Shown: positions 8,186-12,423 of the stretch, in pieces
How the letters are laid out: every line of letters begins with the position of its first letter
Numbering within the stretch: the stretch's first letter is position 1
Virus record (IMG/VR): IMGVR_UViG_3300020060_000010
Span: 1 to 64,000 of that record
Source: a virus
Length of the DNA: 64,000 nucleotides
Reading direction: 5' to 3' (one strand)
Notes under the pieces: generated by a model
Told to the model about the DNA's origin: nothing
Databases searched by the model: none
Seen by the model: the letters and a program-made list of their open reading frames with translations, nothing else
Program-made: the position numbers and the translations under genes

Positions 8186-8265
8186 CGCCTCCAGATAGAA
8201 TCGAACTATCGCGAACAAGGGTAGAAACCTCGTCGCTCAAATACCATGAGTGAAAGCTTAGAGGC
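8186..8265 (-). tRNA. tRNA-Arg(UCU)
   Basis: Acceptor GCCTCTA/TGGAGGC, anticodon arm CGAGG-TTTCTAC-CCTTG, T arm GATAG-TTCGATT-CTATC. The D loop is long (about 15 nt). It is the last gene of the array and its 5' base abuts the stop of the HNH gene. CCA is not encoded. Confidence 0.75.
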
Positions 8266-8666
8266 TATACAGATTTTCTTCTGGGTCGCCTATTGATGCG
8301 TTGATATTCGTTGTTGGCAGATTTACAATCTTGACACTTGCATCCACGCTTATACTTCGCGTATGTGCCACAATCGTGATATATCGTATATTTTTCTTTA
8401 TTTTCTTCTATCGTCTTTAGCATATGACAAGCGTTACAACGCACTACGCATTTGACCAATTCTTTGTCACGGATATCCTTCTTACGCGACCATAATGTTG
8501 CAACATTACATGCCTTAAGCTTGTAATCCACATGATCAATTTCTAATTGCTCTGTACTATCGCAGTCAACACATTTTCCTCCTTGTTCGTTGATCCACTG
8601 AGTACGCCGCTCTGCTCGCCAACGTTTGTCATATTCTCTTTGCTCTTCGATATTTTTATAAGGCAT
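8265..8666 (-). CDS. HNH homing-type endonuclease in the tRNA array
   Basis: About 133 aa. The HNH core is visible (GGKCVDCDSTEQLEIDH, then VVRCNACHMLK), with an extra C-terminal C-rich segment (YKRGCKCQDCKSANNEYQ). The start is the second ATG because SD GGAGGG lies between the two. Such free-standing HNH genes are mobile and spread by cutting related phage DNA. Its stop codon ends at the first base of tRNA-Arg. Confidence 0.8.
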   Translation of the reverse strand: MPYKNIEEQREYDKRWRAERRTQWINEQGGKCVDCDSTEQLEIDHVDYKLKACNVATLWSRKKDIRDKELVKCVVRCNACHMLKTIEENKEKYTIYHDCGTYAKYKRGCKCQDCKSANNEYQRINRRPRRKSV

Positions 8667-8678
8667 TGTTCCCTCCAT

Positions 8679-8913: not shown

Positions 8914-8922
8914 ACACAGCAT

Positions 8923-9009
8923 CAACTCAATCAGGATTTGAACCTGATACTTCCCACCTTTTGCGATGGGTGTGCTTGGGATTGGTTACCCTGCCTCACA
9001 CTCTGAGTT
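8923..9009 (-). ncRNA. aberrant tRNA-like RNA, 87 nt
   Basis: Acceptor-like AACTCAG/TTGAGTT and a canonical T arm (TCAGG-TTCAAAT-CCTGA) enclose a 53-nt middle that does not fold into a normal D arm and 7-nt anticodon loop. The best helices are TGTG/CACA, GGG/CCC and CCCAT-(8 nt)-GTGGG. Either decayed or atypical. Confidence 0.45.
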
Positions 9010-9013
9010 CTGC

Positions 9014-9575: not shown

Positions 9576-9646
9576 AAATCGGCTTAGCCTCGCCGTGAGG
9601 GACCGTCACTGTCAAGTGTCTAGGGAGTTTCCCTAGGAACATTACG
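9576..9646 (-). ncRNA. structured spacer downstream of the permuted tRNA
   Basis: Hairpins CTAGGG-AAACT-CCCTAG, CACT-TGAC-AGTG and GTGA-CGGTCCC-TCAC follow each other directly. No ORF or normal tRNA can be drawn. Confidence 0.35.
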
Positions 9647-9724
9647 AAGGGCGACTTCATCCAATTAGTCTACATGAGATACTTAAATCTCATAGCCGGA
9701 ATCGAACCGACGTTTCCCCTCTCG
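9647..9724 (-). tRNA. apparent circularly permuted tRNA (3' half before 5' half)
   Basis: Transcribed order is: CGA + GAGGG (39-43) + GAAAC + T arm GTCGG-TTCGATT-CCGGC + TATGAGA (66-72), an 8-nt linker, then TCTCATG (1-7) + TA + D arm GACT-AATTGGATGA-AGTC + G + CCCTT (27-31). Acceptor halves pair 7/7 and anticodon-stem halves 5/5 (with wobbles). The 3' half abuts tRNA-Trp. The anticodon loop is open at the permutation point and its sequence is unclear (no obvious U33). Confidence 0.5.
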
Positions 9725-9797
9725 CACACCGCGTAGGGCTCGAACCTACAACCTCAGGTTTTGGAGACCTGCATTCTACCAATTGAACTAGCGGTAT
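9725..9797 (-). tRNA. tRNA-Trp(CCA)
   Basis: Acceptor ATACCGC/GCGGTGT, discriminator G, anticodon arm CAGGT-CTCCAAA-ACCTG, T arm GTAGG-TTCGAGC-CCTAC. Confidence 0.9.
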
Positions 9798-10093: not shown

Positions 10094-10114
10094 TCGTTCT
10101 ATTCTATTCTATTG

Positions 10115-10194
10115 TAGCAGCGGTGGGTGCCGACCCCACTACCTCCGGAGAGACGGGTTTTACAGACCCGCTGTAATGCCGATTACTCACTGCT
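10115..10194 (-). tRNA. tRNA-Tyr(GUA)
   Basis: Acceptor AGCAGTG/CGCTGCT, anticodon arm CGGGT-CTGTAAA-ACCCG, class II variable arm, T stem GTGGG/CCCAC with loop GTCGGCA. The 5' end overlaps the stop region of the HNH gene by 12 nt. Confidence 0.85.
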
Positions 10195-10887
10195 CTGTAG
10201 ATGTTTACGGATTGCGTTGTCCGATACACCAAGTTCTCTTGCTAACTTACTATAGTTGCTATTAGCCAATCTGTCAATGAGTTCTTGTCGTGAAGGCCAG
10301 ACAATTTTTCTCTTTTTGAGATGATGACACTCCATGCATGTAGATGCTCTATGGCTCTTAACTTGCCCGCACTCACAAGATAAACTGCGTGGGATTTTGA
10401 GTTTAACTATTTTTGCCTTAGGAATCTTCTTGCTTTTGTGCCCATATGTAGAAGTTTGCGAATGACAATTTGGGCACAATAGGGTTAAATTTTCCAATAG
10501 ATTGTTGCGCCAGTTACCATCAATATGCTCAACTTCTAAAACAATTTGCTTATCCTGCCAAGTGATGATTCCGCAATTGTGACACTTGTCCTCAACGCCA
10601 AACTCGCGTAATGCTCTGCGTAGCCTATGTGTCGGTTCACGCTTCGTACTGTCTGGGTTGAACATTAAAATATCGCTCGAAGAAATTAAATTTGTCCTCA
10701 AACGGTTATCTCTATTAGCCCAATGTGGATCGTAATGACTTGTGTCTAAATCTAATTTGAATACGCGGCGCTTAAACCACATGTATGAACTGCCAGAACA
10801 ACTGCCCGTTAAAAGTGTGTGTGATTCATTAAAAGATCTACCGGCAGCTACTGCTGCGATGATTTGCTCTTCTGTATATTTACCCAT
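10183..10887 (-). CDS. HNH endonuclease with C-terminal HTH, inside the tRNA array
   Basis: 234 aa. A treble-clef HNH is at about 100-150 (CHNCGIITW, LEVEHIDGNWRNN, NLTLLCPNCHSQT). A second C4 knuckle follows (CECGQVKSH...CMECH), then a C-terminal HTH (LARELGVSDNAIRKHL). Probably a mobile homing endonuclease. TATAAT sits 6 nt upstream of the ATG and no SD is present, so the mRNA is probably leaderless. Its 3' end runs into tRNA-Tyr. Confidence 0.85.
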   Translation of the reverse strand: MGKYTEEQIIAAVAAGRSFNESHTLLTGSCSGSSYMWFKRRVFKLDLDTSHYDPHWANRDNRLRTNLISSSDILMFNPDSTKREPTHRLRRALREFGVEDKCHNCGIITWQDKQIVLEVEHIDGNWRNNLLENLTLLCPNCHSQTSTYGHKSKKIPKAKIVKLKIPRSLSCECGQVKSHRASTCMECHHLKKRKIVWPSRQELIDRLANSNYSKLARELGVSDNAIRKHLQSSE

Positions 10888-11027: not shown

Positions 11028-11030
11028 ATG

Positions 11031-11130
11031 AGTAGTGTTAGGAGAATCGAACTCCAGTGCCTTGCGCGAGGCTAGGTCCTTTACCTTCTCAGCGGGATCG
11101 AACCGCATTGCAGCCATGCTTCACACTACT
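11031..11130 (-). ncRNA. aberrant tRNA-like RNA with two T-arm motifs, 100 nt
   Basis: An 8-bp closing helix AGTAGTGT/ACACTACT and a T arm GGAG-TTCGATT-CTCC next to it. Inside lie GCAT/ATGC, a second T-arm-like GCGG-TTCGATC-CCGC, AGGT/ACCT and GCCT/AGGC hairpins. If GCGG/CCGC is the anticodon arm the anticodon is CGA (Ser), but position 37 would be U. Confidence 0.4.
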
Positions 11131-11133
11131 ACG

Positions 11134-12106: not shown

Positions 12107-12177
12107 AGCCCCAGTGCGGAATCAGACCGCCGTATCCGCTTTACAAGAGCGGCACTTTGTCACTAAGTTACAAGGGC
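12107..12177 (-). tRNA. tRNA-Thr(UGU)
   Basis: Anticodon arm CCGCT-CTTGTAA-AGCGG, acceptor GCCCTTG/CTGGGGC with one mismatch, T arm GGCGG-TCTGATT-CCGCA with one mismatch. Confidence 0.85.
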
Positions 12178-12261: not shown

Positions 12262-12315
12262 GCTAGATCGTTCCTGGCCAGGATGATCCCTGGGCGCACA
12301 ACGCTCTAGCTCGTT
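12262..12315 (-). ncRNA. compact structured RNA, about 53 nt
   Basis: A perfect 7-bp end helix GAGCTAG/CTAGCTC encloses GCG-TTGT-GCGC and CCAG-GGATCATC-CTGG (8-nt loop). Too short for a normal tRNA. Confidence 0.35.
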
Positions 12316-12323
12316 CAATACTT

Positions 12324-12420
12324 AGTACAAGCTCGGATATTATCCCGAGATCTCCATTGGGCCATACGTACATCTTAATGACGCGGTACTCCTCCGGGCT
12401 CTATCTTGAGCTACTTGTAC
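12324..12420 (-). ncRNA. tRNA-like RNA, 97 nt, 8-nt T-type loop
   Basis: Acceptor GTACAAG/CTTGTAC, then TA and a classic-looking D arm GCTC-AAGATA-GAGC. The 3' arm is CTCGG-GATAATAT-CCGAG. The 47-nt middle has no clear 7-nt anticodon arm. It is packed 3 nt from tRNA-Asn like a genuine array member. Confidence 0.45.
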
Positions 12421-12423
12421 AAG

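What the first reader, a model, noticed from the sequence alone, without database searches (positions are those of the whole stretch)
9647..9724. Apparent circularly permuted tRNA gene in a phage tRNA array
A complete 3' half (39-43 stem, variable loop, T arm, acceptor 66-72) precedes a complete 5' half (acceptor 1-7, TA, D arm with TTGG, 27-31 stem), separated by 8 nt. Acceptor halves pair over 7 bp and anticodon-stem halves over 5 bp. The 3' half abuts tRNA-Trp, so it cannot have a conventional 5' half. Permuted tRNAs are known from some algae and archaea; a phage example would need a circularising or ligation step, and this phage has a 2H-type protein. The anticodon loop lacks a clear U33, so it might instead be debris from recombination.
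Basis: partly seen in the sequence, partly recalled or inferred. Interest (0 to 1): 0.8.

Follow-up and report, generated by a model that had tools for sequence, protein, structure and literature searches.

The report
Permuted tRNA-like module in phage array
A phage carries, between ordinary tRNA genes, a tRNA-shaped RNA whose second half is written before its first half; similar elements occur in unrelated phages and match the tRNA-mimicking part of bacterial Y RNAs, so it is more likely a non-decoding tRNA mimic, or a decayed one, than a tRNA that is spliced back together.

Summary
A complete tRNA 3' half lies directly behind tRNA-Trp, followed by 8 nt and a complete 5' half. The acceptor pairs 7/7 and the anticodon stem 5/5; halves of two different phage tRNAs pair this well with probability 8.5e-5.

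The arrangement is not unique. A scan of 373 phage loci found 63 such orphan modules. 57 have a closing outer stem, and several match Rfam YrlA, the bacterial Y RNA whose tRNA-like domain is itself a permuted tRNA. The window copy has the same module but no Ro-binding stem, only 14.7 bits to YrlA (cut-off 69), and no TROVE gene in its 83.5-kb contig. Other stemless modules, right behind tRNAs or in tandem, occur in unrelated phages: L382, L136, probably L133, Lacusarx (two), L379 (two).

Best reading: a permuted tRNA-like module working like the Y RNA tRNA-like domain, released by tRNA-array processing, not decoding; its mimic role is inferred. The main rival is tRNA debris. A functional permuted tRNA-Arg is unlikely: U33 and G34 would be the last bases of tRNA-Trp, and no RtcB or RNA_ligase family protein was found. 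No RNA data and no close relatives with the array were available.

The parts
9725..9797 (-). tRNA-Trp (CCA anticodon), directly upstream; its discriminator base is at 9725
   Evidence: ARAGORN and Rfam RF00005, 60.6 bits
9716..9720 (-). AGGGG, 3' strand of the anticodon-stem-like helix (39-43)
   Evidence: pairs 5/5 with 9647-9651
9712..9715 (-). AAAC, variable loop
   Evidence: sequence; AAAC before the T arm in 4 of 61 other modules and 17 of 1,493 conventional tRNAs
9695..9711 (-). T arm GTCGG-TTCGATT-CCGGC
9688..9694 (-). TATGAGA, 3' strand of the acceptor stem
   Evidence: pairs 7/7 with 9673-9679
9680..9687 (-). TTTAAGTA, linker that closes the acceptor stem into a hairpin; no CCA encoded
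   Evidence: sequence
9673..9679 (-). TCTCATG, 5' strand of the acceptor stem
9653..9670 (-). D arm GACT-AATTGGATGA-AGTC, with U8 and A9 at 9672-9671
9647..9651 (-). CCCTT, 5' strand of the anticodon-stem-like helix (27-31); C9646 would extend the stem by one pair
9620..9636 (-). CTAGGGA-AAC-TCCCTAG, strong hairpin downstream of the module, role unknown
   Evidence: folding

Best explanation
The element is a permuted tRNA-like RNA module: T arm, closed acceptor hairpin, D arm, all closed by a helix in the place of the anticodon stem. It has the architecture of the tRNA-like domain of bacterial Y RNAs (YrlA), but lacks the Ro-binding basal stem and lies directly behind tRNA-Trp. Shown: the anatomy, its non-randomness, and the recurrence of stemless modules behind tRNAs in unrelated phages. 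Inferred: it is transcribed with the array, its 5' end is made by 3' processing of tRNA-Trp, and it stays open at the anticodon end and does not decode. Also inferred: it acts as a tRNA mimic for tRNA-binding proteins, for example as a ligand of PNPase or a competitor of a host anticodon nuclease, a role proposed for YrlA.
For: All four helices complete and both halves orphan. The same order recurs in 63 orphan modules, 57 with an outer stem, and Rfam calls several of them YrlA (L045 48.9 bits, L078 45.9, L133 33.6, L059 33.1, L063 31.7); the YrlA consensus itself shows T arm, closed acceptor, D arm inside an anticodon-like stem. A model from the other modules ranks the window element first in the window. 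Stemless modules behind tRNAs or in tandem: L382 (acceptor 6/6, anticodon stem 5/5), L136 (5/5, 5/5), L133 (weaker), Lacusarx L022 (two), L379 (two, one without acceptor helix). Four of 7 contigs fetched only by the 3'-half motif hold permuted modules. Y RNA biology: PMC8394870, PMC7790460.
Against: No outer stem, YrlA score 14.7 against a cut-off of 69, no TROVE in the contig. No sister phage with the array, hence no compensatory change seen for this copy. No expression data. TROVE is not significantly more frequent in records with modules (6 of 21 usable records against 3 of 26, p = 0.14).
Confidence: 0.5

Rival explanations
1. Debris: a tRNA gene was duplicated in tandem (spacer about 7 nt); then one deletion fused tRNA-Trp to the anticodon loop of copy 1 and another removed the 3' half of copy 2. 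The remaining halves pair because they come from one tRNA.
For: TG at the Trp/module junction could be a microhomology. The anticodon loop is eroded. The array holds other odd tRNA-like pieces. L379 has a module without an acceptor helix.
Against: Needs two deletions that both end at the anticodon loop while all four helices stay intact. Similar layouts recur in unrelated phages; the module score is reached by 0.03% of swapped pairs.
Confidence: 0.28
2. Degenerate Y RNA: a complete phage Y RNA lost the 5' strand of its Ro-binding stem by a deletion that joined it to tRNA-Trp; what remains is no longer a working Ro ribonucleoprotein.
For: Stem-bearing Y-RNA-like modules lie in many phage tRNA arrays. 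The 3' flank of the window element contains CACTTGAC, which resembles the end of the Ro-binding strand as I remember it for Y RNAs (not tested statistically).
Against: No significant YrlA score, no outer stem, no TROVE. Stemless modules recur, so loss of the stem would have to have happened several times.
Confidence: 0.14
3. A genuine circularly permuted tRNA-Arg (GCG): the precursor is trimmed at both acceptor ends and joined in the anticodon loop between C32 and U33, giving loop C-U-GCG-A-G.
For: Arg is the isotype I could not find in the array. A20 is present and the joined loop would have U33 and C35. L377, with a similar 3' half, is a conventional tRNA-Arg.
Against: U33 and G34 overlap the last two bases of tRNA-Trp. 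No RtcB or RNA_ligase family protein in the contig. No known bacterial route for such a junction.
Confidence: 0.07

Closest known systems
Bacterial Y RNA, YrlA (Rfam RF02553), partner of Rsr/Ro60
   Same: Permuted tRNA-like domain: T arm, closed acceptor hairpin, D arm, closed by an anticodon-like helix
   Different: No Ro-binding basal stem, 14.7 bits against a cut-off of 69, no TROVE in the contig; lies directly behind a tRNA
Circularly permuted tRNA genes of red algae and archaea (from general knowledge)
   Same: 3' half precedes 5' half with a short linker between the acceptor strands
   Different: Anticodon loop not independently encoded; no ligase found; no evidence of a mature tRNA
Permuted two-piece tmRNA (Rfam RF04321)
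   Same: Acceptor closed by a loop, 3' part before 5' part; one is present in Lacusarx
   Different: The window element has a full D arm and no mRNA-like domain, and does not match the family
Stemless permuted modules in Lacusarx (L022), L382, L136, L379
   Same: Orphan 3' half directly behind a tRNA or another module, then a paired 5' half
   Different: Acceptor length, linker (up to 62 nt) and helix sequences differ; none is annotated or characterised

Membership tests
Bacterial Y RNA (YrlA, RF02553) | tRNA-like domain in permuted order with closed acceptor | tested here: met
   Anatomy and helices, same order as the Rfam consensus
Bacterial Y RNA (YrlA, RF02553) | Basal stem that binds Ro/Rsr | tested here: not met
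   No outer stem (5 bp best); with tRNA-Trp cut out the flank duplex is no better than shuffles
Bacterial Y RNA (YrlA, RF02553) | Match to the family model | tested here: not met
   14.7 bits against gathering score 69, E 0.15 for the contig; many stem-bearing phage modules also miss 69 bits but reach 28-49
Bacterial Y RNA (YrlA, RF02553) | Ro60/TROVE protein in the same genome | tested here: inconclusive
   None in the 83.5-kb contig, which may be incomplete; a host protein could serve
Circularly permuted tRNA gene | 3' half precedes 5' half and both pair | tested here: met
Circularly permuted tRNA gene | All tRNA positions encoded, including the anticodon loop | tested here: inconclusive
   Complete only if U33 and G34 are taken from the end of tRNA-Trp
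Circularly permuted tRNA gene | Splice signal at the junction and a ligation activity | tested here: inconclusive
   No RtcB or RNA_ligase family protein in the contig; a splice motif was not tested and a host ligase is possible
Circularly permuted tRNA gene | Mature or circular RNA in cells | not testable with these tools
   No RNA data
Permuted two-piece tmRNA (RF04321) | Match to the family, mRNA-like domain | tested here: not met
   No match to it, although the same library finds it in Lacusarx

The most novel reading that the evidence does not exclude
Phages encode circularly permuted tRNAs that are matured and decode, with the Y-type outer stem, or the upstream tRNA in stemless copies, serving as the scaffold that brings the two ends together for ligation; Y RNAs would then be relatives of such permuted tRNAs. 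Many phage modules do carry an anticodon arm with U33 and a purine at 37.
Probability: 0.08. Interest if true: 0.92.

Novelty: new variant of a known kind. Interest (0 to 1): 0.55.

Why it matters
It indicates that phage tRNA arrays commonly hold permuted tRNA-like RNAs that standard tRNA finders miss: Y-RNA-like ones with an outer stem, some in phages with a Ro protein, and a stemless form next to tRNAs. That makes it testable, in cultured phages such as Streptomyces phage Comrade and Sphingobium phage Lacusarx, whether phages use tRNA mimics against host RNA decay or anticodon nucleases, and whether Y RNAs descend from permuted tRNAs.

Tried and rejected
(1) Chance pairing of two unrelated halves: rejected. 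(2) A missed conventional tRNA partner: none for either half. (3) Relatives with the array: DnaE kin (Gordonia phages Chidiebere, GMA6 and DalanDe, Brevibacterium phage Cantare, four IMG/VR contigs) have no tRNA array in the stretches fetched and no module; the contigs with an identical or 72%-identical terminase are 9-kb fragments. (4) The first pattern search gave only conventional tandem tRNAs. (5) Using the module model alone to prove membership: rejected, because tandem conventional tRNAs can score as high (46.7 bits). (6) A small self-splicing intron or ribozyme in the conserved flanks of the stem-bearing modules: dropped when Rfam identified several as YrlA. (7) TROVE enrichment as proof: not significant. 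(8) Other BLAST hits to the 3' half (Comrade tRNA-Pro, Bordetella phage): a conventional tRNA, and an attachment-site-like 3' half next to an integrase.

Full report
Observation. The feature lies on the minus strand of an IMG/VR virus record of 83,545 bases. Behind tRNA-Trp (9797-9725) comes AGGGG-AAAC-GTCGG-TTCGATT-CCGGC-TATGAGA, then TTTAAGTA, then TCTCATG-TA-GACT-AATTGGATGA-AGTC-G-CCCTT. All four helices are complete. Neither half belongs to a conventional tRNA and neither has a conventional partner within 110 nt. Among 1,493 parsed conventional phage tRNAs, halves of two different isotypes pair 7/7 in the acceptor and 5/5 in the anticodon stem with probability 8.5e-5. The full module score is reached by none of 2,818 conventional T arms with their own downstream sequence, and by 0.03% of swapped pairs. 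The halves therefore come from one tRNA or are held together by selection.

Kin of the phage. The DnaE polymerase is about 41% identical to those of Gordonia and Brevibacterium phages. The stretches of those relatives that were fetched contain no tRNA array, and a module search of seven related records found nothing.

The same architecture elsewhere. A BLAST search with the 3' half led to Sphingobium phage Lacusarx, where unannotated sequence between tRNA genes holds two consecutive permuted modules. A structural scanner run on phage contigs fetched by T-arm/D-arm patterns found many more: 63 distinct orphan modules in 373 loci, 58 without any conventional partner. The pattern preselects close T-arm/D-arm pairs, so this is not a frequency estimate. 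57 of the 63 have an outer closing stem (score 7 or more; 31% of mismatched flanks reach that); a stem score of 8 or more is reached by 67%, against 11% for mismatched flanks. Rfam finds YrlA, the bacterial Y RNA, at several of them, though below its curated cut-off (L045 48.9 bits, L078 45.9, L133 33.6, L059 33.1, L063 31.7), and the YrlA consensus itself shows T arm, closed acceptor and D arm in permuted order. In Streptomyces phage Comrade such an element lies about 0.7 kb from an annotated Ro-like RNA-binding protein, confirmed as TROVE. So a permuted tRNA in a phage array is, in general, the tRNA-like domain of a Y-RNA-like element. Bacterial Y RNAs are known to mimic tRNA, to be modified by TruB and DusA, and to tether Rsr to PNPase (PMC8394870); a competitor role against an anticodon nuclease has been proposed (PMC7790460); and TROVE proteins have been noted in some jumbo phages (PMC7824862).

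Is the window element a Y RNA? By test, no. It scores 14.7 bits to YrlA, against a cut-off of 69 and 14.0 for an ordinary tandem tRNA site in the same contig. It has no outer stem, with or without tRNA-Trp in between. The contig has no TROVE. What it shares is the permuted tRNA-like module itself; a model built from the other phages' modules ranks it first in the window, 41.8 bits against 31.6. That model alone is not proof, because tandem conventional tRNAs can reach 46.7 bits; the orphan status of both halves is what counts.

A stemless, tRNA-abutting form. The last pattern scan used only the 3'-half motif. Of 7 contigs found, Lacusarx, L379 and L382 hold stemless permuted modules, L380 looks like a stem-bearing Y-RNA-like element, and L377, L381 and L378 are conventional or conventional-like. 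L382 repeats the window's layout: tRNA-Asp, then AGGGGAAACGTCGGTTCGAATCCGGC-TCACTC, a 62-nt linker, GAGTGA, D arm, CCCCT. L136, fetched for another reason, has GGGGG...CTCCC behind tRNA-Thr. L133 has a weaker example behind tRNA-Met. L379 has two in tandem, one without any acceptor helix. The helices differ in sequence among these phages while staying paired. Of 11 orphan T arms that start 8-20 nt behind a tRNA, three have a permuted partner scoring above 9 (window, L382, L136) and L133 comes close at 8.8, where about 3% would be expected to pass 9. Because the window and L382 were not drawn at random, this supports a recurrent form but does not prove it.

Anticodon arms in the stem-bearing modules. 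In 37 of 63 modules the 3' piece holds a hairpin with a 7-nt loop in anticodon register. 30 of these have U33 and a purine at 37, against 1-5 when the register is shifted. Examples are TCTTT-CTGTAAA-AAAGA in L296 and L340 (Tyr-like), CTGCAAA in L366, CTGGAAA in L330 and CTGCTAA in L181. Several linkers begin with NCCA (for example L059, L063 and L125). These phage elements thus carry a more complete tRNA than the Rfam YrlA consensus shows. I found no paper describing this in the library searched, but several central Y RNA papers are not held, so I make no claim of priority.

Mechanism. The most likely reading is a non-decoding tRNA mimic, co-transcribed with the array and given its 5' end by 3' processing of tRNA-Trp. 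The anatomy and the recurrence are shown; transcription, processing and the mimic role are inferred. Against a decoding permuted tRNA stand the anticodon loop (U33 and G34 would be bases of tRNA-Trp), the absence of RtcB and RNA_ligase family proteins in the contig and the lack of a known route. For it stands only that Arg seems to be the isotype missing from the array and that the joined loop would read GCG with A20 in the D loop. Debris remains a serious rival, since the copy lacks the stem that marks Y RNAs and meets tRNA-Trp at a possible microhomology.

Verdict. The interpretation as a permuted tRNA gene is only partly supported. It works like, but is not by test a member of, the Y RNA family; I file it as a stemless variant of the permuted tRNA-like module.

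Noticed in passing
Loci L296, L340, L330, L366, L181, L254, L259, L228, L194, L137, L078 and others: Phage Y-RNA-like modules often carry an anticodon arm (7-nt loop, U33, purine 37) with many different anticodons, and several encode NCCA at the acceptor end; the Rfam YrlA consensus shows no such arm.
   Followed up: partly
L019 10306-10440 (Streptomyces phage Comrade): Unannotated permuted module with a 14-bp outer stem, about 0.7 kb from a Ro-like (TROVE) gene: a Y-RNA-like element in a cultured phage.
   Followed up: partly
L022 7920-8090 (Sphingobium phage Lacusarx): Two tandem unannotated permuted modules behind an unannotated tRNA-Met-like gene; the same phage also has a permuted tmRNA (L022 15689-15961).
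   Followed up: partly
L269 minus ~11286, L335 ~8159, L360 minus ~1994: 3' end of a tmRNA-like acceptor followed within a few bases by what looks like a tmRNA 5' end: probable permuted (two-piece) tmRNA in viral contigs.
   Followed up: no
window 10103-10190, 11028-11132, 8920-9010, 12107-12177 (minus): tRNAs or tRNA-like sequences that ARAGORN does not list: Tyr-like (GTA), Ser-like (CGA) with long variable arm, Cys-like, and Thr (TGT, found by Rfam).
   Followed up: partly
window ~12310-12422 (minus): tRNA-like sequence with a perfect 7-bp acceptor (GTACAAG/CTTGTAC) and D arm but an unusually long middle part and no normal T loop.
   Followed up: no
window 10183-10887 and 8265-8678 (minus): Open reading frames that look like HNH-type endonucleases, one inside the tRNA array and one just beyond its end; the first overlaps a stretch similar at DNA level to T4-like phage HNH endonuclease genes over about 108 bases.
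   Followed up: no
L378 minus ~80-200: A tRNA-like gene in normal order whose anticodon stem is extended by a long hairpin.
   Followed up: no
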